Assembly: GCA_000349905.1 (NCBI GenBank)
Contig: KB722760.1
Coordinates: 332,005 to 396,004 of the forward strand
Length of the DNA stretch: 64,000 nucleotides
Direction of reading: 5' to 3'
Source of the DNA: Volvariella volvacea V23
Taxonomy: Eukaryota; Basidiomycota; Agaricomycetes; Agaricales; Pluteaceae
Shown here: in pieces, positions 994-41,811 of the stretch
How positions within the stretch are numbered: position 1 is the first letter of the stretch
How the letters are laid out: each line of letters begins with the position of its first letter
Program-made: the position numbers and the translations under genes
The notes under the pieces: model-generated
What the model was told of the DNA's origin: nothing
What the model saw: only the letters and a program-made list of their open reading frames with translations
Databases searched by the model: none

Positions 994-3004
994 ATGCCTG
1001 CAATCCGCCTATCAGCAGCCCGCCGGAGACGCTCGTCCTTGGCCATGTGTAAGTGATCGATATTTGATTCCGTTGATCGCCCATCTCATCCCGCCCCAGC
1101 CGCCATCCAGGCCATAAAGCCTGGCATCTACGGCATCGGCCATCGACCGGTCACCTTTGCACCCAATGNNNNNNNNNNNNNNNNNNNNNNNNNNNNNNNN
1201 NNNNNNNNNNNNNNNNNNNNNNNNNNNNNNNNNNNNNNNNNNNNNNNNNNNNNNNNNNNNNNNNNNNNCATACGAGGAGCCAGACGACCAGGACTCAGCA
1301 CCAGAGGCCGACTCTCTCCCGGAATCGACGCTCTTCCCGCCTGCACCCTCGGAAGCTGCTCCAGCGCCCGCAAGAAGACGGCTGCCACCAGGAAAGCGCC
1401 CGTCCCAGGGCTACATCCCACGACCGCCAAATGCCTTTATGCTGTTCCGCGCCGACTTTGTGCGCCAAAAACACGTCCCAGGGTCGATAGAGACCAATCA
1501 CGGGTCGCTATCAAAGATCATCGGTAAGATCTAGCTTTATGCGCGCATATATCCTGCTTACAGTGCTCAAGGCAACTGCTGGCGCGCGCTACCGCTGGAG
1601 GACAAGAAGATCTGGGAGCAGAGAGCAAAGGTCGCCAAGGCCGAGCACAAGGCCCGCTATCCCAACTATCGTTTCCGACCTGTTCACAACAAGAACAAGG
1701 ACAAGAAGAAGGAGAAGCAGCCCGCCACACGGGAAGAGGAGCGAAGATGCGAAAAGGTCGCCCAGTTGCTGCTGGAAGGCAAAAAGGGAGATGAGCTCGT
1801 TGCTGCGTTCAAGGAGGAAGCTGCATTCGATAACAGTTCTCTTGCCGTTCCCGTCCCCCAACGTCACCGAAGATCGTCCTCTGTTCCCCTTCCGAATGAC
1901 TATTACCAGCCATACACCGACTTGTTCATCCCCTCGCTGGCCCAGCACTTCAACTACTCGAGACCGCCTTCCCCTCTGTCTCGCCAACAGCGAATGATCA
2001 TGGGCCAACGCAGAGCTTCTAGCGCTGCTCCCATGATCAACAGAGGATGGGCGCTTCCCATGGCTCCCACTCAGCTGCAACAAGATCACGAGCCCCTCCC
2101 TGAACCAGATACCTCCCTCTTCGAGCCTTTTTCTTTCAACCAATCCAACGGCACCGGTTTCTCCATGGCCTCCCAATACGACCCTGTCATGATCCCACCC
2201 CACATGCAAGCTCAAGACAACACATTCAGCCCCCTAGACACAAACCCTTACGAGGTCATGATGCCCCACCAGCCCCAGCCGCAACACCACCAGTCCCTCT
2301 TCCCCTCCCCCCTCTCCCTCCAGACCCTCACCCTTCACAGCCCCTCAGGCGCGTCCTCCATGCTCCCCACAGTCGCCGAGTACAGCACCACCTCCTCCGT
2401 TGCACCCTCCCCGTTCTCGCACCCCGCGAGTCAGCAGGCGACGCCCCAGTGGGTCAATTCGTCGCTGCCTATCGACCCGGCGCTTCAGTCCCAGCCACAC
2501 AGCCAGGCCCATTCGCCGGCGGGATACACTGGCACCGGATCCCCCGTCGCTCATGGCGAATTGAGCCTGACGACGCCGACGATGCAGACCCCAGGGCTCG
2601 TCCACGCTCCTCAGGCCCAGCAGGCCCAGGTCGCAGTCGACTCGAACAACCTCTTCCCGGACTCGACGTCCATGGGGATGTACAACTCGAACCAGCACCA
2701 CGCCGCCCACGGCCAACAGGGCGCATACATCGACCACTCGGACCTGCTCAACTTTGATCCCACGCAGGACCTCGACGTGTCGGGTTCTGTTTTGCACCTG
2801 CCCTCCGTGTCCGTGTCTGTGTCGGAGCAGGACACGCTGGGGCTTGACGATCTGTTGAACGGGCAGGGGTTTGAGCATGCGGCGTTTGGGAGCGGGGAGT
2901 TTGCGTTTGTGGGGGATTTGCCGGTGGGGATGGGGCAGGGGTATGCTCAGCATCAGCACCAGCATCAGCATCAGCAACACAGCTCGGTGCAGGTGTCGTC
3001 ATAG
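994..3004 (+). CDS. HMG-box (MATA-HMG type) transcription factor
   Basis: Predicted nuclear sequence-specific DNA-binding protein. Exons are 994-1048, 1100-1523 (containing the N gap) and 1572-3004. The introns (1049-1099 and 1524-1571) have GTAAG donors and keep the frame on the visible sides. Bases 1411 to about 1680 encode a complete HMG box: RPPNAFMLFRADF opens helix 1, SLSKIIG spans the second intron, and NCWRALPLEDKKIWEQRA and YPNYRFRP close it. This form is typical of fungal MATA-HMG boxes. A basic Lys/Arg patch follows. The rest, about 400 residues, is low-complexity Ser/Pro/Gln/His-rich with a His-Gln repeat near the C-terminus, as in activation regions. The protein's true length is unknown because 100 N interrupt it before the box. 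It could be a mating-type or a Ste11/Rox1-like regulator; I cannot decide from sequence alone. Confidence 0.85.
1169..1268. other. Assembly gap (100 N) inside the HMG-box gene
   Basis: This is exactly 100 N, the conventional placeholder for a gap of unknown size. It lies within the second exon, so both the length and the reading-frame continuity of the N-terminal part are unknown. Confidence 0.99.
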
Positions 3005-5038: not shown

Positions 5039-7733
5039 ATGATGGACGGCGTCGAAAAGGGTGGTAACAAGTGTGCGAATAAAGAAGAGGGTGGTGATGT
5101 GGATATGGATAACCAAAGAAAGGATGGTAATATGTGTATGTAGTTCTTATCTGGTTTGCAGACGAGAGTTGACGTTTGGGGCTCTACTCAGAGCGATCCC
5201 ACGAATTTTGGGGTATATACCCAGATGAGGCACAGAAGGTGGACCAAAAGCTTATTGAAGAGTGGACGGGTCCAGCTGATAGCCTTTTAATTTTTGTGAG
5301 TGACTGGACATCCTCAATATGCACTCGGGTATCCATTTCCCATTGCAACTTAACATCAGTCTGGTTTGTATTCTGCCGTCGTCACATCATTCATAATCGA
5401 AAGTCTTAAATACCTAAAGCCCGACCAAGACGACCGGCTCTTCGACTTTATGGTTACAATTTCAGCTCACACTGTGGGCAATGTTTGAGCCGGCGTCGGA
5501 GAATACCGAGAACAAACCTTGAAGTAACTTCTAGTTAGCACCTCGGTATCTCTGTTAGATAAACTGTGAATATACTCAAATTTCATGTCGAAGTAAATTC
5601 ACTTTACTGGCAGTCGGATGTATAATAGGTTCATGACAAGGTATCGGATTCAATGGTATGCGAGTGTTGAAAAAAAGTATATTCATAGCAAGTTGAGAGA
5701 TTTTACTAGGCTGTATCGTAAAAGGATGCGAGAGGAATGTAATGTTGGTATATGTAGATGACAAATTAAAGAGACGTGTACAAAATAAACTGTGATAATA
5801 CAATAAAGACCATCCACGAAGCGACAAGGAACAGAGCAAAGGGTAGGTGGATGGCTAATGATTTAGGTCGTAGTTGACGACACCGATTGCGAAGTAGATG
5901 GTGGCAAGATAACCTGGAGATTTGACGATGGCAGACCAAGTCTTTCGTTTCTTGATGCTTGCTTCTCCAGCAGGTATGCCTCCCCCCTCAAACTGAAAAT
6001 TTCGCAGTTGTTGTTACTATGAAGGTACCCTAATAATACAAAAAATATATCTTACGTTTTGATCATTGTAAATTGTGTGCGTTTACTGTGAATATACTCA
6101 AAACATATCTTTCGATTGTAACCGTGCGATACTCTGACGAGACTAAGGATACATACAGCGGACATGCTGGAATCGGTATGCTGGAACATACCCTGAGCAT
6201 CTTCAGGGTTTATCGTGGCGGTTTCCGTATGTTGGTCTTTTTATTACTATTTTTGGTATGTTCAGCTTACTGGCCGTGCCAGTCTCAAACATTGCCCACG
6301 GTGTCAATTAGCCGCTCTTAACAACGGCAGTCAAGCAATCATAGCCTACACAAACTCTAACCCCGAACCATTTCGCCCACGGACGACTGCAGTCTGGATC
6401 AATGGTTTCTGGCTGTCAAGCCTGGCTCTAAGCTTGATAACTGCAATGATCGGGACGCATATTCGTCACTGGGCAACGTCTTATAGAAAATTGGTCCGCC
6501 AGGACCAGTCCCTGCACAAACAAGGTGTCGTTCACGCATACCTGTTCGCTGGTTTGAAAAAATGGAAGGTATCCAACGTCGTCGATTTTATTCCTACCCT
6601 TATTCAAATAACCTTGGCACTATTCCTTGTCGTCCTTTCACTTTTCCTATGGGATATAAACCGGTCTCTTGCTGCAGTAATTATCGCATTTGCGGCAGTC
6701 TCGAGTCTTGCCGATCTATTCGCCTCGCTAGGTGCCCTATTGGTTTACGACTTACCGTATCATACTCCGCTATCCCATTCGATTTACCAGAGCGTCCTGT
6801 CCACCATCTGCAGTATCCCTTTTTCCAAGGGGCGCTCAGAATTTGATCTGATTCACCTTGCAGCAACGCAACATCTCGACAGCATCCTGAAAAGATGCTT
6901 TGAACTTGTCGTCGTCAATATCAGCGAGAAGGACATGAGAAAGCTCGCTGAATCCCTCCCTGGCATTTTTTCCATGGATGTGCGCGCAGATACCTTAACG
7001 ACAATGTCACAGCTATTCTTTAATTGACATGCCCCGGTGCTCACCACGGCCATTAACGAGCCTGCGGTGGGTGAATAACAAGGCGATATAGTTGCTCCTT
7101 TACTAGGCGGTGTCTGCGCCGCTCTCAGATGCATGCCCAGGAGGGATACCATTGGGCCACATGGTTTTGGTGAATCTTGGGTTGGTCGCTGTCGTAGCTT
7201 CCTCGCTCACGATTCGGCTGCAGTTGTGCAGTCCTCCATGCCAGTTTATGCATACCTGACCAAGGCGATATACTCAAAATCCAATCCTGGTACATTAAGT
7301 AATTTCCCGCCGCTATCTCTCCCAAGCGTCAAAGAACTCCGAAAATGCTCTATTGGAGAGGGTGTCACACCATGGTCATTGCTGATGAAATGCTTCACGA
7401 TATGGCATCCTTATAGGGGAAGTTTGGCCGGAGGTCTACAGTGTGTTCGCTGGTATCGAAACGCAAAAGGAACTTATTCAAGATGTCCAGGCCTCTGTTG
7501 AAGCTCGGCACCGTGGCAACTTGCATACGGCCTTCGCGGAAGCTGCTGTAATCATATTGAAGAAGCACAAAGAAGGCACTGGCTTATATCACAATGAACT
7601 ATCCAAGGATATCCTTGAATTCGCTCGTGCTTGCCGCTCACTCACGGATATCAACCCTCAGGCTATGGGTGAGCTAGAACAAGCACTTCAGGTCGAACAT
7701 GGGGATGTACGGCCTGCAATGGGCTTTATTTAG
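5039..7733 (+). pseudogene. DUF6535-family membrane protein, broken by a transposon, stops and a frameshift
   Basis: The remnant follows the exon plan of the three intact copies in this window. Exon 1 is 5039-5126, exon 2 is 5192-5295 (EFWGIYPDEAQ...WTGPADSLLIF) and exon 3 starts at 5360 (SGLYSAVVTSFIIES). Coding sequence stops making sense at 5470, where a transposon begins. It resumes at 6307 in the frame expected after removing the element and one copy of its 3-base duplication, giving the family motif SAQLAALNNGS across the join. The membrane region then reads normally (VWINGFWLSSLALSLITA, IPTLIQITLALFLVV). Further damage follows: in-frame stops at 7025-7027 and again about 50 bases later, and a frameshift near 7400-7420 before GEVWPEVYSVFAGIE. 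The final frame runs to 7733. The combined lesions make it non-functional as a full-length protein, although a short N-terminal product cannot be excluded. Confidence 0.85.
5470..6303. mobile_element. 834-bp non-autonomous DNA transposon, CACTA/CMC-like termini
   Basis: The ends form terminal inverted repeats: left CACTGTGGGCAATGTTTGAG, and the reverse complement of the right end is CACCGTGGGCAATGTTTGAG (19 of 20 identical, weaker beyond). The element is flanked by the direct repeat TCA (5467-5469 and 6304-6306). Removing the element plus one TCA restores the DUF6535 reading frame, which independently confirms both boundaries. Termini starting CACTG/CACCG with a 3-base target duplication fit the CACTA (CMC) group. 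No transposase reading frame is present, so it would need an enzyme supplied in trans. An 18-base direct repeat (ACTGTGAATATACTCAAA) occurs inside at 5563-5580 and 6085-6102. The superfamily assignment is less certain than the element itself. Confidence 0.85.
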
Positions 7734-13199: not shown

Positions 13200-13763
13200 T
13201 TACCATGCAGGTGGCTTGCGCTTCCAAGCGGGTGGGGATGGGCCCTCTCGTTTCCAGTCGGGTATCCTCTCCGATTCAGCATCCTCCCTCTTCCAGGGAG
13301 GGGCTGCTCCCTTCGCTGACTCTCTCCAGGCTGGTGGCAGGGCCTCTCGCTTCCATGCCGGGGGTCCAGCTGCGGCAATGGACAAATCCTCGTCGCGCTT
13401 CCAAGGAGGTGGGGCTGCTGCCACATCGTCATCGCGCTTCCAAGCGGGCGGGCCCTTTGCGTCACGTTTCCAAGGAGGAGCGGGGACATTCTTGACGGGG
13501 ACGGCACGCTATAGCAGTAGAGGTGATGATACAATGAGCTATCGGAGATCATGAAAATCTCGAAGCGACTTACTTCAGCATAGACGTCGCGGGCTTGCTC
13601 AGCATTGCGGAGTTGCAATGACTCCGTGTCGGCCTAGTAAGGGATCCGAGTATAAGCGAACCTTCGCAGAGGGGTTACGTGGGGGACGTACAACAGGAGC
13701 AGCGGCAACGTGAGTTGCAGCGAGCACGGAGGCCAAGATCAAGGCAAGGAAGTTGGTGCGCAT
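13200..13763 (-). CDS. Secreted Kex2-type repeat peptide precursor with Trp-ended cores
   Basis: A 146-residue precursor. Exons on the minus strand are 13763-13692, 13633-13574 and 13508-13200; the introns (58 and 65 nt) have GTACGT and GTAAGT donors and are phase 0. Residues 1-22 form a clear signal peptide (MRTNFLALILASVLAATHVA, then AA). Exon 2 encodes a short charged pro-region. Exon 3 encodes nine short cores, each ending in Trp at 57, 67, 80, 96, 105, 116, 129, 139 and 146, almost all with Pro-Pro before it (PAPPW, GPPAW, APPPW, PPAW, IPDW). Seven are followed by Lys-Arg, one by a single Arg (106), and the last is the C-terminus. Six of the seven Lys-Arg sites are followed directly by Asp or Glu. 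This is the layout of precursors cleaved by a Kex2-like protease in the Golgi, as in alpha-factor-type pheromones, KEP proteins and some fungal RiPP precursors. The core is unfamiliar to me, so the function is open. Confidence 0.85.
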
Positions 13764-18519: not shown

Positions 18520-20597
18520 TTAACAAGGTCCTATATTGACAATAGGACCCTCCAAATCCTCAGAAGTATCTGTGCCGTCCGAAAATATCCCCCGAATTTC
18601 ACAAAACTTATCATACAGCACCTCTCCTTGCCACCGTCTTTTCCTATATGTGCTCAAGGCCGTCTCCAGGGTGTCCTTGACTTGCGGTACATTCATCAAT
18701 GTAAAGCATGCATAGACCAAAGTATGGACGTCTTCAATAAGTTTGGGATGTCCTAGGGAAATGTATTCAGAGCCAATTCGCTCGAGTATGATCGCCGCAA
18801 TATTTGCAAATGCGATGGGTATATTATCCTGCAGCCAAAAATTGACGATCGTCAGTCGACAATGTTTCGTAGGCAAAACTTGAAACCAAGCTACCAACGT
18901 TTTCTGGAGGAGCATTGGTAGTGTCCCCTTCCATATCGCTCGTGCTCAAACCCGCGAGAGCCTGATAGACGTTCGGCCACGCCTTCCGCATCAGTACAGC
19001 CTCAGATTCGTCGGCCCTGTCAAAACACTTTACGATCAACTTTCTCGTTATTTGTGGGTTGTCAAGCGCGAACCCAGGGGGCAACGTTGGGGGCGAATAG
19101 GCACGAAATACCGCCAAATCCTCTGCGCTTGGTAATTTGTTTGGGTTCAACGGCACTCCATCTGATTCCGCGCTTGCGAGGTAAGCGTAGATCGCCATGG
19201 CTTTCTGAGCGACTTTGCTAGTCTGATGCAAGAACAACGTGGTACAGCGATTGAACCACAGTTCGTCCCAGCACTTTGATTTGGGGATGTCGACAGGGTT
19301 CATGTGGCTCAAGGCCGTCTCGATTGCGCGTAACAGCACTACGACCCTCCTATCTATATCTTCTCCTACGTCGTCCAAGAGCTCGTCGAGGATGTTGCCT
19401 ATTGAAGGAGCGTACAACTCCATAAATTCGGACGAGAGCGTGAGCAAGGTCGCATCGTCGAGTACGGAGCCATCCAAAAGACCTGGAAAAGACTCGGCAA
19501 TCTTTTCCACCTCACCGTCCTCGTCCACAGCATCGGCTACAAATCGAAATGCTTGCAGTAGGCTGTCACTGTTCTGGAATTTTTCTTCAGCCACGGACAG
19601 GCGCAGGCGCGAGTACGGACGAGCGTTCGAATATCCGAGGTGCTTGAGGAGGAGAGTAAAAAGGGAGAAGAAATAAATCAGCCATTGAGAGAAGGGAGTG
19701 CGATAGGGAAAGTTGTATACGAAGAAGGGGGTGAATGAGGCAATGAAATAGAGAAGAGTTCCAATCACTACCATAGCCAAAATGTGCTTTGCTAGCGGCT
19801 GGTACAAGCACCACACGAAGAGGATTAAACCACCAAGGAAAAAGATCAAGGTGACCTCGATAAGACCGGGAATGACATTGGCGATGCTAGATATACGCCA
19901 TTCGACTAGGCCTGCGAACAGGTAAGCGCGAAGCTGTCTGCGTGAGTGAGGTGATCGAAAGCGGGATATTGATCGTTTATATGACCTGGCCGATTGGTGA
20001 AGAAGGGCGCCGAGCAGAGCAGTCGTCAAACTAAAAATTAAGCTCATAAACCATAACCAGTTCATCCAGATCGTGATTGCTGGAGGTTGAAATTGGTCGG
20101 GTTGTAGAGGGGTATAGGCAGGAACGATGTCACTGCCACTATGCAGAGCAACTATCTGGGCTGATATCGTGGTCATGATATCGGAGAGTATGCGCTCAGG
20201 TTCAGGTTGCAAGCCTTTATAGCTCTCGAGTATAAACGACGTAATGACCGCGGGAAATAAACTTGACTAAAGGCAGTTCATTGGTCTGGTTTCATGGATA
20301 AAGCGACACTGTGCTCACAAAAACAAGAACACTATTCGCTGCTTTTGTCCATTCCTTGATTAATTCTTGATCCTCCTTTTCTACTTGCCTCCCATGAAGT
20401 CCCCAAAACTTTTTAGATGTGCGTTTCTTTTTAATATTTTGCTTAGCTGATAATGCGTATTATTCATCCGTAACATCTTCTCCAGTAAGCTAACACTCAC
20501 AAGGCTCACGACATGGCGATGCAAGTCGTTTTTCATTGTGTGTGTGCTGGGCCTCGACATCGAAGCTGATGTTGATGTCGCGGTCGTCCATCTTCAT
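18520..20597 (-). CDS. DUF6535-family integral membrane protein, 633 residues
   Basis: Exons are 20597-20501, 20446-20319, 20266-18899 and 18828-18520; the introns are 52-70 nt and the reading phases close. The conserved domain begins in exon 2 (KKFWGLHG, then ELIKEWTKAANSVLVF). A phase-0 intron precedes SSLFPAVITSFILESYKGL. A first membrane segment follows near residues 141-165 (WMNWLWFMSLIFSLTTALLG), then a charged loop and two or three more hydrophobic segments (VIPGLIEVTLIFFLGG; AMVVIGTLLYFIASFTPFFV, then YNFPYRTP). This pattern is diagnostic of DUF6535. The C-terminal half is soluble and probably helical. The last intron (18829-18898) has an unusual GTTGGT donor; if retained, a stop follows after 25 codons. 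The molecular role of the family is unknown. It lies in tandem with the next copy upstream on the same strand. Confidence 0.85.
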
Positions 20598-21452: not shown

Positions 21453-23474
21453 CTAAACGGGGTCCCCTGACGCCTGAGGGGAAGCTGTCTGCACATACTC
21501 ACGGAACTCCCTTTTTACTTCCTCACTCAAAGTTCCCCTGTACGAATTCAGAGCATCCACCAGTTCTTGCTGCGCCTTCGAGTCAGTTATATGCTTGAGA
21601 GCAAAGCATCCTCGAATCACTTTCTGAATGTCGTCGAGAAGTTCTGGATATAGCTCGACTTGGCCAGTTTGTCCATGATAGCGCGGTTTCGACTTCAAGG
21701 TGAGCTGGTTAACCAGAGCTGCTGCCGCCTTCGTGAATGCATTAGAGGCTGTATGTTGCTGCTGTGGAGTGAGGGTTTTAGTAGCCGGGCTTAAGGTGTC
21801 AATTGTGCCCCTATTGCTGTTGCTCAAGCCAGCAAAAGCCATGTAGACTTTTGGCCACGCTCCTCGGATATATTTCGCTTGATTTCCATCGGTTCTGTTA
21901 AAGCAGTCTACAATCATCTCCCAAGATATCTCGGGTGCGTCGGGAGTTGATCCAGAGGGCGGTGTAGGGGGTAGATACTTTCGAATGAGCATGACGTCCT
22001 CCGTAGTTGGCAATTTACCCGAGCCAGATCCCGTTCCTTCCGCTCCAAGTTCTGCGTTGATTATGAGTGCGTAAATAGCCATCGCCTCTTGTGCCACGTT
22101 AGGAGACCTGTGCGAGAAGAGTGCACGGCAGCGCACAAGCCATTGTCCGGAATTGGGTATGCCTTCCGTCAAACTCAAAATGTATCGCTTTTCCGTGTGA
22201 CTGAGGGCAGACGAGACTGCTCGCAAAAGCTTTCTTATCCTAGTATCTTCCTTCTCCGAGAGGGTATGAAGTAGTCGGCCAACTGAGGGGGTATAACATG
22301 AGATGAAGAGACGAGCGCTCTTTGAACGACTCTGCGGGGGTAGTCTGGAATCACCTAAAACGCTAGGAACGCATTCTGCAATTTGTTCTATTAGCCCTTC
22401 CGTGTCTAGATGTGGGGCAAGGAACCTGAAGGCCTCGTATAAGTCGACATCTGTATTCCTGCGTGCCGTTTCCTTGAGCTTTTCCGCGTTCCGTTCGGCA
22501 AAAGACGAGTATTGCGGAAGCGCTGGCCTGTGACTTGGAGAGCGGGTAGATATCGAGGAAGAATGGAACGATAATTTGAAGAAGGCGGTAAAATGGGGTA
22601 AGAAGAGCACCAAGCGTGACAAAGCCGTTCGATAAGGAAAATCGCAAGTAAAAAGAGGAGCAAATGAAATAAGCAAATATATGCCGGTTGGTACCCCCAC
22701 AATAGAGACAAGTCCTATTGCGATGGCTTGATACACGTCCCAGATGAAGAGGAAGAGGCCAGCAAGGAAAAGAATCAGAGTGATCTCGATGAAAGTGGGA
22801 ATAAAAGCGACAATTTCTGGCATTCTCCATGTACGCCGTAGTCTAGGGAAAACATATGTGCGGACTTCTCCACGGACCTGTGGCGCCTTATAGTCAGAGA
22901 GAGTCGAGTTGTAAGCCCTAGTTGACTCGTGTAGAAGGGCGCCAAAAAGAGCCGTCATCAGACTGAAGGCTAAGCTCGAGAGCCACAAGCCATTTACCCA
23001 TACCATGATTAAGCGTGGACGAAATTGATCAGAATCAGGGGGTACATAGGCAGGGGCGACGATGCTGCTGTTTTGTAGAGCGGCTAATTGCCCTGACATT
23101 GTGATCAAAATATCGGCGAGTCTTTGGTTGGAGTCGGGCTGTAGGCTCCTATAACTCTCGATGATGAATGATGTCGTGACTGCTGAGAACAAACTAGACT
23201 GGAAAATGTCATACCAGTCGTGGCTTGTAAAGATAAAAAGAGTGCTTACAAAAATTAAAACGTTATCCGCTATCTTTGTCCATCTCTCGATTAGCTCCTT
23301 TTCCTCCTTCTGGACCCCTTCTTCGAATAGACTCTGAATTGTTTCAAATGCGTCACGGTATGGTGTTCTGTCGCCAACGTGGTCTATGTCTAATAAAGTA
23401 TATTAGCTCTCTATGTTCCCTGTTCTAGAGGAACCGTAGTACTCACAGAGGTGCTTTTCGGGATCAGGTGCCAT
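21453..23474 (-). CDS. DUF6535-family integral membrane protein, 637 residues
   Basis: Exons are 23474-23447, 23389-23250 and 23198-21453, with introns of 57 and 51 nt. The start gives MAPDPEKHLY. The domain opens with KELIERWTKIADNVLIF, followed by the family-specific phase-0 intron and SSLFSAVTTSFIIESYRSLQ. Membrane segments include VWVNGLWLSSLAFSLMTALF and a pair around FIEITLILFLAGLFLFIW and IYLLISFAPLFTC, ending in DFPYRTALS. The soluble C-terminal half continues without the last intron present in the other copies. Compared with its neighbours it has a longer N-terminal linker and a different short first exon, so the paralogs diverge most at their extreme N-termini. Function unknown; probably a membrane protein of a family expanded in Agaricomycetes. 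Confidence 0.85.
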
Positions 23475-24177
23475 TTCTGAGAGGTTGGTATTTATTGCGA
23501 CCAGCGCAGGAAGCGCAAGACTTGCGGCCTTATGTACTGTGGATTATGGGGACAGCATCACATATGCACCTTGACGTGATAGGGTACATCACAAGTGTGG
23601 TAACCTGCTGGTGCTCATTCGGTTGCGGATGACAAGTGCAATGGAGGATCCTCGAATAGCTCTGATGGAGCATATCACGAGGGTAGGGTTGTCCCAGAGC
23701 AGGCGTGCAAGGTGATCAAACAAACTCGGGGCTGGGTTGATAGTTGAGCTGTGTTTGCACTACGATTAGTCTGGATGGCAGCAGCATGGTGGGTGCTGTG
23801 GGCGTTCCTTCTAGAACTACACTGCGACGTCTTGAGGCTGTATTAGTCGCTTCGCACTAGCTTTGATATGAGTGGATAGTCACAGCTATTCTCGCTGCGT
23901 GTACATACTACCTTGCTCGAGCACACAACCCCAACCCATACGAAGTATTGAATAACTCCTCCATTAAGGAATTAAGCCTACACGTGCACTGTCAATGCAT
24001 TTTCAGCCTCACGAGTCGTCATCAAATGTGTCCAGTAGTCACTACACCTCGAGACCAGACCACCTGTCAATATAGCGATGCAACACGTGTTCATGCCCCG
24101 TTCCATCTCTCACTCCTACTATCATCATCGCTAACACTTCAAACTCACCCAAAGCGCCTTTCTCTACTGCTACCTCG
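23475..24177. other. Intergenic region between divergent genes
   Basis: No gene seen. It lies between the starts of a minus-strand DUF6535 gene and a plus-strand small protein gene and must carry both promoters. Confidence 0.4.
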
Positions 24178-24993
24178 ATGTCGTTCATTATGAAGCCTTT
24201 GAGACGTTTGTCTTTGCGTCCTTGGAGAACGCCACAATCCAGACGCAATTCGATGGATCAGCCACAGGTCTATGCTCACTCTAGCAAGAACGTGCAGCTC
24301 AGTGCCCCCAACTCCTCAGATGAGGATGCCATGCTGGTCTATCTTGTCTCTGACCCAATACCCGATGGTGTGGAAGTTGGGTCTGTGAAATTTACAATAA
24401 GGAGTCATGACCAAGGTTGGGGTGGTGACCGTGGGCTCTCTGGTACGAATTTCTCTCGGCTCTTAATATGGTAAATCCCGCCTCATCCTGAATCGTGGTT
24501 AGCACCGTATGAGGGATCTTGGACTTGGTTTAGTGCGGTTGCAATTTCGGAAAGCGAAGCAAAGAGTATACGAAACCCTGCAAAAGTCAGGGACCTTTGC
24601 ACGAGGGCTGTATTAGTTCAACGTAACAAGCGCGCAGATTCAACAAAGCTAACCCACGTAGTATCTTGGAAAAGGGGTAAGACCCAACTTCATAATGTAG
24701 ACGAAGATGGTAAAGGGGATGGTCACGGGTTCGTAGAGAGCCTTGAACCCCGTAATAAAATTGCACTTATCGCTTTCGCTCGGGTAAGTGACGGATTATA
24801 AGTCGTCATTTAATACTGAAGTGCCTGGCTCTAGCACTCTGGTTGGACGAATTATGTCCACGAAGCTAGTATTGAGATCGAATACTCCACCCCTGAAGCT
24901 GCACCTCCTCAGAACCCCGCTCCCCAACAGGCTCCTGATACTCAAAATTCCCCTCAAGGTGATACCCTTACTCGGGAGCTTTCACCTATCTAG
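24178..24993 (+). CDS. Small beta-sandwich-type protein, copy 1 (234 residues)
   Basis: Exons are 24178-24442, 24503-24783 and 24835-24993, with introns of 60 and 51 nt; phases close exactly. A basic N-terminus leads into a domain with the landmarks AMLVYLVSDPIPDGVEVGSV, SHDQGWGGDRG, SWTWFSAVAIS, QRNKRADSTK, VDEDGKGDGHGFVESL, IALIAFARHSGWTNYV and ASIEIEY. I recognise this DQGW ... SWTWF ... GW.N pattern from a lineage-restricted fungal domain found alone or at the front of larger proteins, but I cannot attach a database name or function. The tail (about 35 residues) is Pro/Gln-rich. No signal peptide or membrane segment is seen. A close paralog lies at 28684-29395, so the pair brackets the secreted propeller gene. 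Confidence 0.75.
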
Positions 24994-26162
24994 AATTCTC
25001 CTACCTAGGACTATAACCGAGCGCATGGAGCTTCTCCTTTTTAAATCCCTTCTCTGGCTCAAGATACCCTAACATTCCGTGGATTTCTAGCGCTCGAGGT
25101 TTTATGTTTCCTGAGGCTTAGAGACATCAAGTAGATGTTGCTCCGAGTCGTGAAGTGTACATATGAAATATAATCTAATTTTATATATATTGTAGTAGTC
25201 CCTTCTATTAGTTACTCTATTTATAATTTACCTCATAGAACGCGAGAACTACTTCGGGCACTCACTCTTTGTAGGACCGGTTTTTTCTTCTTGCTTTTCT
25301 TTTCTTTTTCTTTTCTTTTTTCTTGAATGTATGAATGAGATATAACAATGAATGTTTTGCACACCCAAACCATATATATACTTCCAATGCTTGTAGATGA
25401 GGCTGGAAGCTCTGACCACGGTATGAAATAGCGTTCCTTGGCTATACTGTTGTGCAATACGCTCAACCAAGCCTCTACAGCTCTACTCAACGATGATCGA
25501 TAGTCCGCAGATCAGGCTCATTTATATCAGTTAACGTATTCTTCCTTCCAATACAAATGGACAGGATACATATCATTGGGATATATGTGGAATTAGGGTT
25601 ATCGGACAGTCCAAAGACGCGTTATGCCGTGTGACAATCGTAAACTTTGTACCGCTCGCCCAACACCAACCCAGTCTACTTACTGAGCCTAATGCTTGAG
25701 TCTCCTTATAACCCCTCGGACCACCCCAACTATACTATGTGCTCGATCCGTTCTTCCCAGTGACATAAGCCTACCTATTCCCTAATTAAGCGCTAAAGAT
25801 CCGCTGGATCGCACTCTAAAAGGAGGGATTTCCCCGATAATTCGCACTTCCGATAATATGACGGGCTACCCGTTGGAGACAGTGGAGGTATGCCCTATTG
25901 CGCGCACACACCTGCAAGATCACTTCTGTTGTTCACGTATTCTCATGTTCGTGAACTCTGTAGTTCTGTGCTCCTGGAGCTTAACGACGAAGAGCTAGTG
26001 TGTAGGTATGCACCTCATTTTCCCCGTACTGTAGTAAGCCATATGGGATACCTCGTTCTAACGGCCCGTTTTGCTCCTCAGAAGCGCCGTCACGGGGCAC
26101 AACATTGAATTCAAATCCTACATAAAATCCCTGGTTCAAACACTCTTCTAAGCTCATTGAAG
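24994..26162. other. Intergenic region, no gene seen
   Basis: It contains a long polypyrimidine run (about 25270-25325, T-rich with scattered C) and an A/T-rich TATATATATACTT stretch near 25371. Short frames on both strands overlap these simple sequences and are not credible genes. The last few hundred bases should hold the promoter of the secreted propeller gene. Confidence 0.4.
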
Positions 26163-27492
26163 ATGATCTCCCTTTCATCTCTCGTATGCTTGATTTCGGC
26201 CCTGGCATCATGCATAACTCTCGTTACTGCATCCCCGCTCAATATTACGGGACCAGCTATTTCACCGGAAGCCTTTAAGCGTGCAGTAGCGGCGCCCTAC
26301 GTGTTCACTGCATTTACATCTGCTTCAGAGTCCAACCTCTACGTTTATACGTCAAACGATGGCCTCAATTTCTCGCTTTTGAAAGGTCCAGCGTATACGC
26401 CACCATCAGGATTGATTCGGGATCCAAGCCTTATCCTTCATACCGAGTGAGGAATGCCCCAGCATCGTACCATTAGTAGTTCTAACACTCAGGATGCAGC
26501 GGAAGATACTATATCTGCTGTACGTCTCGTGCTATTGATAATCCCGAACTTAGTGCGAGCATTACATTACGCCAGACACAACGAACTGGACCGGAACCAA
26601 CTTCGCAATCGCGGTGAGCCGTGACATGATGACCGCATTAAGCCCAACTTCTCACTTCGATTTTAATATAGAGCAGCACAGACCTTTTGACTTGGAGTCT
26701 AGTGGCTACCATTTCTACTGCTTCATCCGTTATCACACCTGTAAATACGTGGGCGCCAGTATGTTTAACCTTTGTCCTCGCAATTTAGACAGTCTGACCT
26801 TGCCATAGGAATTCTTCAAGGACCCAAGGACCGGGCAAATTAATATCATCGTTTCGCTTTCTACCGGAAGCTATGGGCCATTCCTTCCTTACGCATTCAC
26901 GGCACTCGATTCCTCTTTAACGCGATGGAGTGGTCCAGTCGTTCTCTCAGGGATCTCAAATGCTGGTCTTGGTTACATCGACAGTTTCCCTGTGTACTAT
27001 AAGTAGGTCCCTCAACTGGCCCGGACTCTATAATTACAACGCACTAACATCACCCGCTCAGTGGCCAATATCACCTCTTCGCTAAAGCCGAAACCAACGG
27101 AAAGAAGGTTATAGAACATGCCGTCGCTTCTTCACTCACCGGTCCGTACACATTTGTTCAAACCGGTAATTTCGCCGGGTGGGGTCAGGCGGAAGGTGGT
27201 TGCGTAGCCATTCTGCCTAATGGAAGATTCCGTTTGTACGTACTGCTCTCTGCGACCTGTCACCTAGTCGCACATCACTTATTGGCATGAATTCCCTCCC
27301 CCCTTCAGGTATGCTGATGGTTACAGCTCTGGTAAGTACATCCTCATCGCAGGATAACAATTGCTGAGTATGCTTGAATTGACAGGCAAATACATTTACT
27401 CGGATTCAAGCGACTTGTATAACTGGTCAGCAGCTCAGACTCTCCCAGGTTTAAGTGGTTTTGTTCGTCACGGGACCGTTTTGAAGCAGTGA
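26163..27492 (+). CDS. Secreted GH43-like five-bladed beta-propeller protein (308 residues)
   Basis: Eight exons: 26163-26446, 26500-26519, 26576-26613, 26672-26758, 26809-27002, 27062-27235, 27309-27331 and 27386-27492. All phases close and introns are 50-73 nt. Residues 1-23 form a signal peptide (ISLSSLVCLISALASCITLV). The mature protein looks like a GH43-type arabinanase/xylosidase fold: RDPS with Asp87, YIDSFPVYYNGQYHLFAK with Asp201, and WGQAEGG with Glu252 sit where the family places its base, pKa modulator and acid. The length matches single-domain GH43-like proteins. It is probably extracellular and acts on arabinose- or xylose-containing plant polysaccharides, but the substrate cannot be read from sequence. 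The tiny second exon (20 nt) and the GTACGT donor after it are needed to keep the frame. Confidence 0.8.
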
Positions 27493-28683
27493 GGAACGTC
27501 AGCAATTGTATCAACTCGAGGCTTCTTGAGCCCCAATCCATTGTACTTGTAAAGTCGTCATTGATACAATTGATTGAGAATTATTCAATCTTGACCCTAT
27601 CATGTTGCATACTCTGGCCTTTCCCATAGACATTCCATGACATTAACTGTGAGTTGGGCGTCTAATAGAGATGGCCCCCTGGGGGGTGCTACATCAGATT
27701 CAAACGTCTTACTCCGAGTCCACCTATGCCGCCTATCACACCCTATAAATAATTCGTGATTGTGACGGGATCCCCTGCGGCGGTGAACATGGGTGATGTA
27801 TATGAAGCGCAGTATAGGCCGGACGGGGGATTGGCACTCAATTCGGGCATGTGGCTAGTGCATTTAAGTGGAGGATTGGATGTAGTCGCCTCTTCTAGTC
27901 GCCAACCAACCACACAGGTCAACCATTTAATGCTGAATAAGTTACCCATAGGACTGTTCAATCTGCCGATTCTTTGGGTTAAGTCAACTCAATGATATGA
28001 TCAACGTCTTTGAGGTCGGCCTAGGGTTGTGGCGTCAGGAGCTACATGCTGGTACAACGTGTCAGTGATCTGGAATACTTTCATAAGCACTAGCATGATC
28101 ATATGTTCAAGTCAAGTCCTCTGAATTAGGTAGTTGATCCAATGCTATCACCAATTCACTATCATGCATGGCATACAGCACATCGCCACGTTCTATATAG
28201 GAATAGATGGCCAGGCGCTTGGCCCTGGAGTAGACGAAAAGAAGGCGAACAATTGACTACTCCCTGACCAGGTGATTCCGTAGCGCTGTTCTCGAATGTC
28301 AGGGAACTGGAGTTAACTTGAGTTGAACTCTGTGCAACCTCAATCACCCATTGGAAGAGAACTTTGCACAGGACTCGTGTCTTCAAGAGTCTGTGATCGA
28401 TGTCACAACTATGATTCTCTGCCGAAACGTGGTGGACTGAGCTTGTGCAGGCATCCTATCAACAGATCCTCATCACCACTTGGGCAACGGAGTCAATGTA
28501 ATGCCGGGCTGGCCAGGTTCAACGTAACCAGGCATCTCCACTCTAAGCCAGACCACGAACGCGACCCCACAGATAGGTGATCCAATACGTGTTCACACCC
28601 GCCACAATTCCCCTTCCATTGTCACCACCGCCCCCAACACAACCTTCGAGCACACTCGAATTATTTACAAGTACTCTCCCGGC
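27493..28683. other. Intergenic region, no gene seen
   Basis: No supported gene. The frames at 27756-27995 (plus) and 27743-27961 (minus) are mutual antisense shadows without recognisable motifs. The end of the interval (28560-28683) resembles the region just upstream of the paralog at 24178 and probably carries the promoter of the next gene. Confidence 0.4.
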
Positions 28684-29395
28684 ATGTCAGTGCGGCGGTC
28701 CAAGCGACAAATGTTCAGGGAGTATCTCAAGGGAGGAGCGCCACACGAGCAAAGGCGGCAGATTTATTCTCGTTCGACCAAGAACGAGCAGATCAGTGCT
28801 TCGGATGACGATGCTATGCTAGTTTACCTCGTCTCTCCCCCGATTCCCCCCGGTGTACAAGTGGGGTCTGTGAAATTCACAATAAAGAGTTGTGACCAGG
28901 GATGGTGCAGTGATCGCGGACCCCTCAGTATGTGTTTTTCTTCAGTTTTTTAATTGTGTTATAAATTTCGACTCACCTCATCTCGTGATTAGAGCCGTAC
29001 GAAGACTCTTGGACTTGGTTTAGTGCCGTCGCCATTTCGGAAGGCGAAGCAAACAATATAGGGGATCCTGGAGGCGTTCAGAGTCTTATTACTAGAGCTG
29101 TACTAGTTCAGCGCAACAAGCGTGCAGATTCAACAAAGCGAATGCACGAAGTGTTTTGGAGAAGGGGCGAGAATCCGAGTCGTCACGTTCGACAGAATGT
29201 GGACGAGGATGGTAAAGGGGATGGCCATGGATTTGTGGAGAGCCTCAAACCTCATGATAGAATCGCACTTATTGCTTTCGCTCGGGTGAGTGGTGAGCTC
29301 TTCGCTGCGACGACTTTACCCACTAAGGTTCCTGGACTCAGTACTCTGGTTGGATAAATAATATATATGAGGCTAGTATGCAGATATCATTCTAG
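28684..29395 (+). CDS. Small beta-sandwich-type protein, copy 2 (196 residues)
   Basis: Exons are 28684-28927, 28993-29285 and 29342-29395, with introns of 65 and 56 nt; phases close. It is a clear duplicate of the gene at 24178-24993, with the same intron positions and the same blocks: DAMLVYLVSPPIPPGVQVGS, SCDQGWCSDRG, SWTWFSAVAIS, LVQRNKRADSTK, VDEDGKGDGHGFVESL and IALIAFARYSGWINNI. It differs by a different basic N-terminus, a small insertion in the central loop (EVFWRRGENPSRHVRQN) and a stop shortly after the final strand, so it lacks the Pro/Gln-rich tail of copy 1. Unknown function; no signal peptide or membrane segment. Confidence 0.75.
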
Positions 29396-31282: not shown

Positions 31283-34200
31283 TCATCTCAAAGTAACCTT
31301 CGAGGTTACCTTCGGCAACGCCCCCGTACTCGAATAATGCTGTTGCTGATAAACATACACCTGACCGCGTTCATCACCACCACCACGTCCGCTCCGTCCG
31401 CTCGAAGTAGTGCTCGTCCCACCACGGGCGACATTCAACGCCCCAAACTGCTCCGCAAGACCGGCAGTGCCGCCAGTCCCAGCCGTGCCCCCAACACCGT
31501 GGTTCAAATCTTCCGCTGATCCAGCAGCCGACGACGCCGATCCCGATCCTCCAACTGTGCCCGTGTTCGCGCTAGCCGATTTGATGCTCAAGAGCACCTC
31601 CTTGCAGTATTTGAGCTTGTCTGTAAGCTTTTGCAGGAACTTGACCTCGTCGGGGTTCATGGCGTCGATAACCGACTGAGGCTTCAAAGAGAACGCCATG
31701 ACTTGAGATAGAGTCCATCTTGTCATCTTGTACGATTTGTCGATGTAGGTGATCAAAAGACCGTGAGAGGACAAGATGAGCTTTGTGTGGTCGTAGAAGT
31801 TGAACTGCAGAGAAGAGAAAGAGAAGGCATGGTGTTAGCAAAAACGTTCAGAAACCGTGATATGGTTGGAAAAGAAAAGAGACGCCGAAAAGAAAAGAGA
31901 CGCCCGAAAGAAAAGACGGAAATGCGGAGCAAGGAAGCTGTAAAATGAGAACACCAAAACGGGAAACCTCGACCGAGGAAGTACAATCTCAGGGACGAAC
32001 ATTGCACTGCTACTGATATCAACGTGCCAACGCTGCAGGGAAGCATGATATGCCGCCCCCTTCTCACGAGCACCCAGGACCACCATAGACAATGACAACG
32101 ACGATAACGATGACTTACCTGCAACACATCATGGCTCAGCTTGAACACAATAACGTGCTTCATCCTCAAATACTTCTGCACCCACTCCATCCCCTTCGTC
32201 CTGCCCGTATCTTCAAATGTATACTCATACTGCGAGTACAGCCTCTCCATGATATACTTCTCAAAGTGCTTGAGCAGGTACACCTTGCTCTTGAGGTCTT
32301 CAGGATAGTTCTCAACCGTATAACTCTTGCGGTAATACACTGTCCCCTGGTGCCGTGACGTGATATAGTCAAAATGCCTACATGAAGCCGAACAGAAGCG
32401 TCAGCAAAAAGCTCATCAACCCCCAGGACCCATCAACCCAAGGGAAGCAAAGAACACCATCCACCCACCTTTTATCAGGACTCAAAACCAGCGAAGTGCT
32501 ATCATTAAAATGCACCCCCACAGTCCCATCCGTCAGCGCATACCCCATCCCATACTTGTTGCAGTAATCCACCCAGGAGACGATGAACACCCGCTCCTCA
32601 GGAATGGGCAGATGCGCGTCTTCCCTCGGATCGCGGAACATCCTCCCCGCTGCTCTAGCGTCGAAAGCTAGCGTCAAAACATGCGCCGCGGCGTCAAAGG
32701 CGTTGAGTTTCTGCTGAGGTGCGATAGCAGAAGATCCTGTAGCGGCAGCTGTCGATTGGGCTGTTTGATCACGATGGGCGGCACTAGGTACTATTAACAC
32801 GGTAAGCACTCCCAACCTCCAAAGTAAACGCTTATCGACTTACTCGGTGGGAGGGGATTCTCCTTCTCCCTAGCAGCTCTAATAGTCTCCCTCACCCTCT
32901 TCGAAGACACACTCGTCGCCGACGCAGTAGTCGGCAAGGGCGGAGGAGGCATATTCTCCCTCTCGCCCTCCGTCTCCCTCTCACCCTCGCCATCACCATC
33001 GTCTTCCTCCCTCACAGGCACCATCTGCGCCACAATCCTTGCCTTCTGGGACTCCAGCTCTTTCTTCTTATGCCTCATCTCCTCTTCCTGATCATCGCCT
33101 CTAGTTCTAGGCAACGCGCCCGTCGTCCCGCTCATAGCAGCTTGCTCATCAATCGCCTGCTGAGCACGGGCCTGTCGACTCTTAGTCTCCTTAGCGGCTT
33201 GCAACTTTCTCAACAAGTTGTTCTCTCCGGTATATCCATTGGTCGCGGCCGGACCGACGATCAAAGGCTGGCGAGCGGAGCTCAACAATGCCGAGATGGG
33301 CGAGCCGGGTTGGACAGCCTTCTGGAATTCTTTCTCCTGTTGGGCAATGCTGGAGGTGATGCTCTTGGTTACATTGTCTGTCGGGGCGTTTGCAGCATTG
33401 GAGTTGGAGTTGGCTGCTCTGGAGATGGAGATAGAAGTCTGTTGGTCTTCGTCAAGGAAAGCATGACGTCTGAGACGTCTGAGGTTGCTTTCAGATTGGG
33501 AACGAGTGATGAAACGGAAATCCGGGGGAGATTCGAGAGCAGAAACGGGAATGTATCCGGGAACGATGCCATTAATGAAGAAGGGGTGCTGAATGATTTC
33601 ATGAAGAGAAGGGCGCATGCTTGGGTCGGGCAAGAGGATTTGTTGAATGAGGTGTTGTACATCAGTGGAGATCTGACGGTCGACTGGGAATTCGTAAACA
33701 TTATCGCGGATGCGTCTAGGCAAACGATTTAGGAACAAGCAACGAGCCAGAGAAGACGGAACACCCACTGATAGATCACTTTGACTTCCTTTGTCTGGAA
33801 GGGCGGGCGACCAATAACAAAGGTGTACAGGATGACACCAAGAGACCAGGTGTCGACCTCGAAGCTGTGGCCATTGACGGTATCGAACAAGACCTCGGGG
33901 GCGATATAATTAGGCGTCCCACATATGGTCTTCTTACGCTCTCCAGGGTTTTCAATCAAGGCGGCCAGGCCAAAATCTCCGACCTTCACATTCATTTCCG
34001 AGTCCAAGAATATGTTACCCAGCTTCAAGTCACGGTGAATAACTTGATGAGTATGGAGATAGTGGCATGCTCCGATGAGCTGAACCATGAAAAAGCGGGC
34101 CTCGGGTTCGGTGAACCTTCGTCGGCGGCGAAGCATGTCCATAAGCGATCCGTTACAACATAATTCGAGGGTCATGTAGACGTTCTCGCCGTCTTCAAAA

Positions 34201-39795: not shown

Positions 39796-41811
39796 TTACT
39801 TAGGACCAGCACCGCCTCCACCGCGTCCTCCTCGTGGTCCGCCTCTTCCTCTGTACCCACCTCGTCCTCCATCCTGTCTCTCACCATTAACATGCCCACC
39901 TCTCGCACCTCCATCTCTTCCGCCTCGTCCAATGCCACCAGGTCCACCAGGCCCGCCTCGCTCGCCCTTCTCCTTCTTGACCTCCACGCTGATCCTCACC
40001 TGGCCGTTCTCGGCGCCGTTGACGTCAATCCAGACGCCTCCGCCTCCGCCTTGGTTCTGGGGAAGACTGGCAATGATGGCACGCTTGGCAGAGTCGACGG
40101 TCTCAAACTCGACATAGGCGACTTGGCGGCCGCGCACTACATCAATGTCTTTCGTTGTGCCGAAGCGGGAGAGGGCTTCGCGGAGCATTGTGTGCGAGAT
40201 GGCTTCTGTCACACCCTACAGCAGCAAGAGACAAATCGTTAGTTTTTGATGCAAAGGATCGATCAACATGAGGACACGTACCTTGATAAAGCACTGAGCG
40301 TGAGTTATACTCTGCGCAGCGATAAGATTAGGGTGATCGGGTCGTGGTCCACCTGGAGCGCCTCCATGTCCACCATGGTGTGGAGGTCGTGGTGCAGGTA
40401 CGGGTGCGGAGCTAACAGGCGTTTCGCTGATGCCACGGCCCTCTTGAGCGACATTGGACCCCCACTTCTTGGAATTGGAGGCGGCGAGTGATGCCCATGA
40501 TCGGGGTGCTGAGGGTGCAGGGGCGGGCGTGGGGGCTTGGACGGGAGGCTGAGTTTGTGCTTCCTGGGGCTGCTGCGGTGGTTGTGATTGGGCAGCTGGT
40601 GGAGCGGCAGGGGCGGCGGCAGTAGAGGATGGGGTTGCGGAGGGAGCGGGTGAGGGCGCGGCGGGGGGTTGTGGTGGCGCAGGAGAGGGAGCAGCGGATT
40701 TTTCGACGGGGGTGGCGGCGGATGCAGCCTTTTCTGGTTCTGGGGCGTGAATGCCATTAGGCTGGGCGGGAGGAGGGGTGGGTGCTGAGGTCACGACAGG
40801 TTCAGGTTCAGGAACGGGAGCGGGAGGTTGAGAAGTGGGTGTCTCAGGAACATCGTTGGTTGGGGCTTCCTCAACTGGGGCAGAGGTGGGAATGGAGACG
40901 GTGGGGGTTGGGGCTTCGGGAGCAGGTGGCGGTGGAGTGGGTTGACGTGGGGAGTCGAAGATGGGAGGGGTGGTTTGAGCGGCGTTGGTGGTGGGGGCAG
41001 GCTCGGGGGCAGGAGCAGGAGCAGGCTCGCCTTCGGCCGCCTCTTCCTCCTCGTCAACAGCGTCTTCCTTCAAGAAGCGGAAGATGTCATTAAGGACAAA
41101 GTAGCCGTTAGGCTGCTCGGCGAGGAAGAAGGTTTGAACGAATTTGCGCCAGGGCTCGTTTTGATTGGACATCTCCCCAATCACCTGGATGATGATGCCG
41201 CCATTGCTGGAGGACTGGGCGTCGACGGAGTGAATAAAGACTTTGCAGTCCTTGAATCCGATGGACTGGATCTTGCTGTGGATCTCCTGAATAGGCGCGG
41301 CAAGTCAGCATCTGATGCGCGTCGGGACAAGCAGATGGAAACAGAGCGGGCGACTGCGTCATCAATGTCACGCCCAAAGTCATGCCACTAGCCGCGCGTG
41401 CGCGACATTCTGGGAAATAGAAAGCGCAGACACGAAAATGCAACGAGGCGCGTGCAAATCGATGGGGTTCCATCAAATCACTGGCTCGGTTCCCGCGTTC
41501 ATTAGTCATTCCCCAGAAATGACTCGGACGAGCGATGGCGATGGCAGCGCACCCCAGAGCAGTGCGGGTGACAGACGACGCAGAGAACATGACAGTGAAA
41601 GCTGCCGACATACCTGCTGACCAAAGCATGGCTTTCCCTCCTCGCCCTCGGTGCCATGGGTAAAGGTGGACTGCTTCGTGTAGAAGCAGTGGAGACGGTC
41701 GGGCTCCTTGTTGACAAAGGTGTAGTACTGAGGGACAAACTGCCATCCGACCTCAGAGGGAACGACGTTTTGGTGGATGGAGTTGGCGGGGGTCGCGGTC
41801 GAGGATGTCAT
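39796..41811 (-). CDS. G3BP/Nxt3-like RNA-binding protein (NTF2 domain + RRM + RGG), 540 residues
   Basis: Exons are 41811-41614, 41286-40282 and 40215-39796, all phase 0, with introns of 327 and 66 nt. Residues about 18-140 form an NTF2-like domain (VGWQFVPQYYTFVNKEPDRL, FIHSVDAQSSSNGGIIIQVI, WRKFVQTFFLAEQPNGYFVL). A 200-residue Pro/Ala/Gln-rich linker follows. The RRM spans the second intron (AQCFIKGVTEAISHTMLREA, then RQVAYVEFET), and the protein ends in an RGG-rich tail (GGYRGRGGPRGGRGGGG). This order is the signature of the G3BP family, including fission yeast Nxt3 and the yeast Ubp3 cofactor Bre5, linked to stress granules and to a deubiquitinase. It is expected in the cytoplasm. Its start is divergent from HET-C with 382 bases between the start codons. 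Confidence 0.9.

What the first reader, a model, noticed from the sequence alone, without database searches (positions are those of the whole stretch)
13200..13763. A small secreted precursor that appears to release up to nine Trp-ended peptides
The minus strand encodes a signal peptide, a short pro-region and nine cores ending Pro-Pro-(Ala)-Trp, seven followed by Lys-Arg and one by a lone Arg. Seen directly: signal peptide, two phase-0 introns that skip in-frame stops, and repeats. Known: Lys-Arg is the site of Kex2-type proteases, and repeat precursors of this layout include alpha-factor pheromones, KEP proteins and dikaritin-type RiPPs. Inferred: mature products are short peptides such as GPPAW or APPPW after carboxypeptidase trimming. 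Basidiomycete mating pheromones are normally farnesylated CaaX peptides, so a hydrophilic alpha-factor-like precursor would be unusual. I do not recognise this core from any described peptide.
Basis: partly seen in the sequence, partly recalled or inferred. Interest (0 to 1): 0.92.

Follow-up and report, generated by a model that had tools for sequence, protein, structure and literature searches.

The report
Mushroom precursor of Trp-ended secreted peptides
This straw-mushroom gene appears to encode a small secreted protein that is cut into several short proline-rich peptides ending in tryptophan, a further member of a kind already described and partly detected in other mushrooms, whose job is still unknown.

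Summary
On the minus strand, 13763-13200, three exons joined across two phase-0 GT-AG introns give a 146-residue precursor with nine Trp; seven are followed by Lys-Arg, one by a lone Arg, one is the C-terminus. One detail is off: core 7 ends Ile-Pro-Asp-Trp. An annotated Volvariella volvacea WC 439 protein has the same length and one change, in the signal peptide.
It fits the KEX2-processed repeat proteins (KEPs) and is not a new kind: Vogt et al. 2022 (PMC9769878) detected GPPAPSW and DDDPEGPPAPSW in Coprinopsis cinerea and mention many basidiomycete KEPs with Trp-ended cores. A profile search found relatives in three Agaricales and one ascomycete at E below 1e-3. Pro stands two before Trp at 32 of 33 dibasic sites in the five such hits outside the query.
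By the patterns used it is the only such tandem in its genome, no UstYa match lies on its contig, and X-Ala or X-Pro follows three of seven Lys-Arg sites. Best reading: linear Trp-ended peptides for signalling or biotic interaction. Processing is inferred; function is not shown.

The parts
13692..13763 (-). Exon 1: signal peptide region MRTNFLALILASVLAATHVAAAPV (cut expected near AAA|PV, judged by eye)
   Evidence: hydropathy 2.85 over the 11 residues from residue 5; no trained signal-peptide predictor was run
13634..13691 (-). Intron 1, 58 bp, GT-AG, phase 0
   Evidence: WC 439 protein has the same length
13574..13633 (-). Exon 2: pro-region ADTESLQLRNAEQARDVYAE
13509..13573 (-). Intron 2, 65 bp, GT-AG, phase 0
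   Evidence: WC 439 protein has the same length
13200..13508 (-). Exon 3: nine Trp-ended cores, seven Lys-Arg sites, stop codon
13464..13508 (-). Core 1 segment RAVPVKNVPAPPW-KR (freeing its N-terminus would need a cut at a single basic residue)
13434..13463 (-). Core 2 segment DAKGPPAW-KR
13395..13433 (-). Core 3 segment DDDVAAAPPPW-KR
13347..13394 (-). Core 4 segment DEDLSIAAAGPPAW-KR
13287..13346 (-). Cores 5 and 6, EALPPAW-R-ESAKGAAPPW-KR (a lone Arg between them)
13248..13286 (-). Core 7 segment EDAESERIPDW-KR (variant IPDW end)
13218..13247 (-). Core 8 segment EGPSPPAW-KR
13203..13217 (-). Core 9 segment KPPAW, C-terminus

Best explanation
A KEX2-processed repeat protein (KEP) of Volvariella volvacea. 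The signal peptide sends it into the secretory pathway (inferred from sequence); a Kex2-type protease cuts after each Lys-Arg (inferred), a Kex1-type carboxypeptidase removes the basic residues (inferred), and up to nine linear, Pro-rich peptides ending in Trp are secreted (inferred), several with acidic N-terminal leaders, for example DDDVAAAPPPW, DEDLSIAAAGPPAW and EGPSPPAW. A Ste13-type dipeptidyl aminopeptidase may shorten some, giving KGPPAW, and LPPAW if the lone Arg is also cut. The steady Pro-x-Trp end suggests that a partner reads the C-terminal end and that the variable leaders matter less (inference). The likeliest role is an extracellular signal or a molecule for dealing with other organisms, rather than mating or a cyclised RiPP; this last step is the weakest, about 0.5 on its own. 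The confidence given is for the precursor and processing, not for the role.
For: Anatomy and non-randomness. WC 439 carries the same precursor with 1 of 146 residues different, in the signal peptide. Relatives: P0002 at E 3.3e-4 in the database search with the repeat region; the profile made from the window protein and P0002 lists 17 proteins at E up to 10, 7 of them below 1e-3, of which 5 are not the query's own P0001 and P0002. Pro at -2 from Trp in 81 of 85 dibasic sites over 17 proteins (window plus 16 hits, P0001 left out), and in 32 of 33 in those five hits. Five different codon pairs encode the seven Lys-Arg. Enzyme families found in the genome: P_proprotein 1 match, DPPIV_N 3 exon matches at one locus, Peptidase_S10 17 exon matches. 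[quoted passage not shown]
Against: No transcript, peptide or knockout data for this gene. The relatives were found through the motif that is then counted, so the Pro counts are inflated. Some rows are not independent: P0009 repeats much of P0006, and P0007 resembles P0005. Of the 17 hits, 10 have E from 0.05 to 9.7, which for most is chance level. The Kex2 match covers part of one domain, and Peptidase_S10 is not specific for Kex1. The function part has no direct support; in Coprinopsis, knockouts of six KEPs showed no phenotype and tested synthetic peptides no antibacterial activity.
Confidence: 0.85

Rival explanations
1. An alpha-factor-like mating pheromone precursor that works in partner recognition.
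For: Layout like ascomycete alpha-factor precursors (signal peptide, pro-region, Kex2 sites); X-Ala follows two Lys-Arg sites and X-Pro one. The V. volvacea genome paper (PMC3602538, passages) reports that pheromone precursor genes were not evident beside its receptor-like genes.
Against: Basidiomycete mating pheromones are of the prenylated a-type (PMC9769878 introduction). The 12 STE3 exon matches lie on contigs C24 and C2, none on C25. The repeat region is identical in two strains, whose mating types were not compared. A Ste2 search found nothing, but its controls were silent too, so it does not count.
Confidence: 0.04
2. A dikaritin-type RiPP precursor whose cores are cyclised by UstYa-type oxidases.
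For: Same kind of precursor layout; UstYa-family matches exist elsewhere in this genome (4 exon matches on C12 and C23).
Against: No UstYa match on contig C25 (counts are lower bounds); no Tyr in any core; in Umemura 2020 only 103 of 1680 basidiomycete KEPs lie near such genes. A distant enzyme is not excluded.
Confidence: 0.05
3. A cell-wall or surface protein, like Rep1 of Ustilago maydis, whose Kex2 pieces assemble on hyphae.
For: Rep1 is a basidiomycete Kex2-processed repeat protein (passages of PMC6339444).
Against: Rep1 peptides are 37 residues long; the pieces after core 1 here are 5 to 18 residues, with net negative charge in 4 of 7.
Confidence: 0.05
4. A chance open reading frame or a dying gene.
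For: No transcript data; only two database matches below E 10 in the single-sequence searches.
Against: Shuffle tests, same protein in another strain, relatives with the same repeats, several with a signal-peptide-like start.
Confidence: 0.01

Closest known systems
Coprinopsis cinerea KEP 447393 (Vogt et al. 2022, PMC9769878)
   Same: Agaricomycete secreted precursor; its detected peptides GPPAPSW and DDDPEGPPAPSW share an acidic leader, Pro-Pro and a Trp end with DDDVAAAPPPW and DEDLSIAAAGPPAW here
Coprinopsis cinerea KEP 490115 and its basidiomycete relatives (PMC9769878; Fig. S10a known from the text only)
   Same: Short cores with C-terminal Trp (QMRPPSW, QYKAPSW) after dibasic sites
   Different: Cut at Arg-Arg with X-Ala/X-Pro motifs removed; here X-Ala or X-Pro follows 3 of 7 Lys-Arg sites
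Trp-ended KEPs of Lentinula and Pleurotus (-AADW) and the XSDW motif of Le Marquer 2019
   Same: Repeated Kex2-flanked cores ending in Trp
   Different: No Pro-Pro; the Lentinula one is a seven-fold repeat of one peptide, whereas here the leaders vary
Ascomycete alpha-factor pheromone precursors
   Same: Signal peptide, pro-region, Kex2 repeats
   Different: No Pfam match, so no MF_alpha; incomplete Ste13 signature; different core
Dikaritins (ustiloxin type)
   Same: Kex2 repeat precursor
   Different: No Tyr in the cores, no UstYa match on the contig

Membership tests
KEX2-processed repeat protein (KEP) | N-terminal signal peptide | tested here: met
   Read from sequence, with a hydropathy peak of 2.85; no trained predictor was run
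KEX2-processed repeat protein (KEP) | Repeated short sequences between dibasic sites, at least four fragments (rule of Le Marquer 2019) | tested here: met
   7 Lys-Arg sites, 8 fragments, each ending in Trp before the basic pair or the stop
KEX2-processed repeat protein (KEP) | Peptides are really released | not testable with these tools
   needs LC-MS
Alpha-factor-type pheromone | Ste13 signature (X-Ala or X-Pro) at the Kex2 sites throughout | tested here: not met
   After the 7 Lys-Arg sites stand DA, DD, DE, EA, ED, EG, KP: 3 of 7 fit, 4 do not; the Lys-Pro is followed by Pro, which is recalled to block such cuts
Alpha-factor-type pheromone | MF_alpha domain | tested here: not met
   0 Pfam families for P0001 at E 0.01
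Alpha-factor-type pheromone | Cognate Ste2-type receptor in the genome | tested here: inconclusive
   0 matches, but the control genomes were silent too
Dikaritin RiPP | UstYa (DUF3328) gene near the precursor | tested here: not met
   4 exon matches genome-wide, on C12 and C23, none on C25
Dikaritin RiPP | Cyclised core | not testable with these tools
   needs mass spectrometry
Trp-ended basidiomycete KEP group of PMC9769878 | Sequence similarity to KEP 490115 or 447393 | not tested
   their full sequences are not in the text held; P0004 is from Crassisporium funariophilum, a species the paper names for a KEP similar to 447393, but whether it is the same protein was not checked

The most novel reading that the evidence does not exclude
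The gene belongs to a family of secreted precursors spread over both great fungal phyla, all releasing short peptides with a fixed Pro-x-Trp end, read by a dedicated receptor as a non-mating fungal hormone or as a signal to other organisms.
Probability: 0.15. Interest if true: 0.7.

Novelty: new member of a known kind. Interest (0 to 1): 0.36.

Why it matters
It adds a clean precursor, single-copy by the searches made, from an edible cultivated mushroom to a class whose peptides have been detected but whose function is an open question. The steady Pro-x-Trp end with variable leaders points to the part to test. The ascomycete hit at E 7.9e-5, if a true relative, would make the group wider than the basidiomycete one described in the text that I saw.

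Tried and rejected
Paralogues: a protein search of the own genome gave 3 exon matches, all this gene. The Pro-Pro-Ala-Trp-Lys-Arg pattern matched 4 places, 3 here; the fourth, on C1, stands alone in a frame with stops on both sides. A tandem pattern of two Pro-x-Trp sites, the first followed by an acidic residue, matched 6 places, all here. A triple Trp-Lys-Arg pattern matched 4 places, 2 here; the other two are out of frame. Other kinds of KEP in this genome were not sought.

Single-sequence searches gave little: 1 protein at E up to 1 among 387 candidates, 2 at E up to 10 among 1035. The profile of two sequences gave 17 among 2569; all three such searches are used.

Considered and set aside: a likeness of ends such as -SPDW in relatives to insect adipokinetic hormones, a thought prompted by one paper in the listing and otherwise recalled. 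Those hormones are blocked at both ends (recalled), and no Gly for amidation follows Trp here. No test was made.

Families: no Pfam match for P0001 (E 0.01) or for 10 of the 16 other hits (E 0.1); no NCBIfam match for 6 of 17, a library built for bacteria and archaea, so of little weight. No structure was predicted, since short Pro-rich peptides would give no useful model. DNA of the relatives was not available, so shared intron positions could not be tested.

Print: the strings PPAWKR, PPDWKR, SPDWKR, PPPWKR, GPPAPSW and QMRPPSW were searched: 2 papers, PMC9769878 and an unrelated one on supply chains. A looser search held 6,020 papers, 25 listed, none of those with the six-letter strings. 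One search (Volvariella volvacea, Kex2, pheromone, KEP, any two) held 9,087 papers, 20 listed; in the listing no title or abstract start joined Volvariella with KEPs, but PMC13211469, on yeast killer toxins, holds both 'Volvariella volvacea' and 'Kex2' and I did not open it. One search listed 25 of 797. Supplements were not open to me, so the gene may stand in a supplementary table.

Full report
What is there. The minus strand between 13763 and 13200 holds a three-exon gene. Exon 1 (13763-13692) gives a signal peptide, exon 2 (13633-13574) a 20-residue pro-region, exon 3 (13508-13200) the repeats and the stop. Both introns (58 and 65 bp) have GT-AG ends and phase 0; read through, the frame meets four stops. 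The spliced protein has 146 residues and nine Trp: seven before Lys-Arg, one before a lone Arg, one at the C-terminus. Eight cores end Pro-Pro-Trp or Pro-Pro-Ala-Trp; core 7 ends Ile-Pro-Asp-Trp, a small correction to the finding.

It is not chance. Seven Trp-Lys-Arg sites stand against at most three in 100,000 shuffles of the repeat region (the last Trp was left out of that region by a slip). The DNA pattern for Pro-x-Trp-Lys-Arg has eight matches in the window, seven of them here, against a mean of 0.69 and a largest count of three in 100 shuffles. The seven Lys-Arg use five different codon pairs, which fits selection on the protein motif, though the repeats need not all descend from one unit.

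Whose gene it is. The one strong database match is a hypothetical protein of Volvariella volvacea WC 439, also 146 residues, with one difference, at residue 15 in the signal peptide. The own genome has 35.39 Mb in 54 contigs. Three STE3-type receptor loci lie on contig C24, about 68 and 5 kb apart, and a fourth on C2; the V. volvacea genome paper gives 72 and 4 kb for its three on scaffold 24, and 35.7 Mb in 62 scaffolds (passages of PMC3602538). I infer that the window is from V. volvacea, perhaps strain V23.

Copy number and surroundings. Protein and pattern searches found no second gene of this kind in the genome, by those patterns. The nearest matched frames are DUF6535 proteins at 6197-7024, 18827-20266 and 21456-23402. 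Of 20 proteins given to Pfam (19 window frames and P0001), 11 had any match: HMG_box (below its cut-off), DUF6535 four times, POLO_box and Pkinase (both below cut-off), NTF2 twice, Het-C; that is ten frames by name, and I count no peptide-modifying enzyme among them. The frames were a selection of the larger ones, so small or many-exon neighbours may be missed. UstYa matches lie on contigs C12 and C23 only. Nothing seen points to a biosynthetic cluster.

A correction to the sentence above, so that the count is plain: the matched window frames are 1535-3001, 6197-7024, 18827-20266 and 21456-23402, and 31756-32400, 32797-33909, 40219-41304, 41509-42504, 45019-45936 and 48098-49462, ten of 19 frames; P0001 matched nothing. 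The figure of ten is the right one.

Relatives. A search with the repeat region found P0002, from an unnamed JGI record, at E 3.3e-4, with a signal-peptide-like start and seven Trp before Lys-Arg or Arg-Arg. A two-sequence profile of the window protein and P0002 then listed 17 proteins at E up to 10. Seven are below 1e-3: P0001 and P0002, which the profile already holds, and Panaeolus papilionaceus, Crassisporium funariophilum and Hebeloma cylindrosporum (Agaricales), Purpureocillium lilacinum (Ascomycota; E 7.9e-5) and the unnamed P0007. The other ten, E 0.05 to 9.7, include Suillus, Hohenbuehelia, Ephemerocybe, Lentinula, Rhizoctonia and a second ascomycete, Elasticomyces elasticus, at E 9.7, which alone is chance level.

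Counts over 17 proteins (window plus 16 hits, P0001 left out): 85 Trp stand before Lys-Arg or Arg-Arg; Pro is at -2 in 81, Pro at -3 in 49, Asp, Pro, Ala or Ser at -1 in 82, and an acidic residue follows the basic pair in 51. Split by strength, Pro at -2 is 14 of 14 in window and P0002, 32 of 33 in P0003 to P0007, 35 of 38 in P0008 to P0017; without P0009, which repeats much of P0006, the total is 79 of 83. These counts are inflated because the proteins were found by this motif. Five proteins (P0006, P0007, P0008, P0010, P0015) have an 11-residue hydropathy maximum below 1.3 in their first 35 residues; in some, such as P0006 and P0015, a signal-peptide-like stretch starts at a later Met (by eye), so their gene starts may be wrong.

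Processing. Cutting after dibasic sites gives the pro-region joined to core 1, then pieces of 8, 11, 14, 18, 11, 8 and 5 residues. Freeing core 1 and parting cores 5 and 6 would need cuts at single basic residues; Vogt et al. report products that appear to come from cleavage after single Arg in Coprinopsis KEPs made in Pichia. After the seven Lys-Arg sites, X-Ala stands twice and X-Pro once. That a Pro after the X-Pro pair resists such trimming is recalled, not tested. The genome has matches to the Kex2 P-domain, DPPIV_N and Peptidase_S10 families, which shows the families, not the specific enzymes.

What is known. Le Marquer et al. 2019 (PMC6339444; sections 9, 10 and 15 and passages) reported alpha-factor-like KEPs and an XSDW repeat in basidiomycetes. 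Umemura 2020 (PMC7329392; section 6 and passages) counted 1680 KEPs in 317 basidiomycete strains surveyed, 103 of them near UstYa-type genes. Vogt et al. 2022 (PMC9769878; abstract, introduction, results parts 1 and 2 of 3, discussion and passages) detected GPPAPSW and DDDPEGPPAPSW from Coprinopsis, -AADW peptides from Lentinula and Pleurotus, and state that many other basidiomycete KEPs have Ste13 motifs and Trp-ended cores. The likeness of DDDPEGPPAPSW to DDDVAAAPPPW and DEDLSIAAAGPPAW is striking. Knockouts of six Coprinopsis KEPs, 447393 not among them, showed no phenotype in the conditions used, and synthetic peptides gave no antibacterial activity in the strains tested.

Verdict. A real gene by sequence and a new member of a known kind. 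What is added here is the Volvariella precursor itself and a hint that the Pro-x-Trp end is shared by a wider group. Shown: gene structure by sequence, lone copy under the searches used, relatives. Inferred: secretion, processing, linear products, a role in signalling or interaction.

Noticed in passing
6197-7024 (+), 18827-20266 (-), 21456-23402 (-), 48098-49462 (+): Four reading frames match DUF6535 (Pfam PF20153), a family of unknown function, so this window carries several copies.
   Followed up: no
24076-24471 (+) and 28528-28950 (+): Two frames share a similar stretch (DDAMLVYLVSDPIPDGVEVGSVKFTI and DDAMLVYLVSPPIPPGVQVGSVKFTI), seemingly a duplicated gene; the first has no Pfam match, the second was not scanned.
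   Followed up: no
45019-45936 (+): Fragment matching Het-C, heterokaryon incompatibility protein (E 4.6e-7).
   Followed up: no
26109-26447 (+) and 27048-27287 (+): Frames that by eye look like parts of a secreted glycosidase, the first with a signal-peptide-like stretch; neither had a Pfam match.
   Followed up: no
own genome C12:171212-173428 (L016, L017) and C23:452514-473612 (L018, L019): UstYa-family matches, two on each of two contigs: possible dikaritin-type clusters of this mushroom.
   Followed up: no
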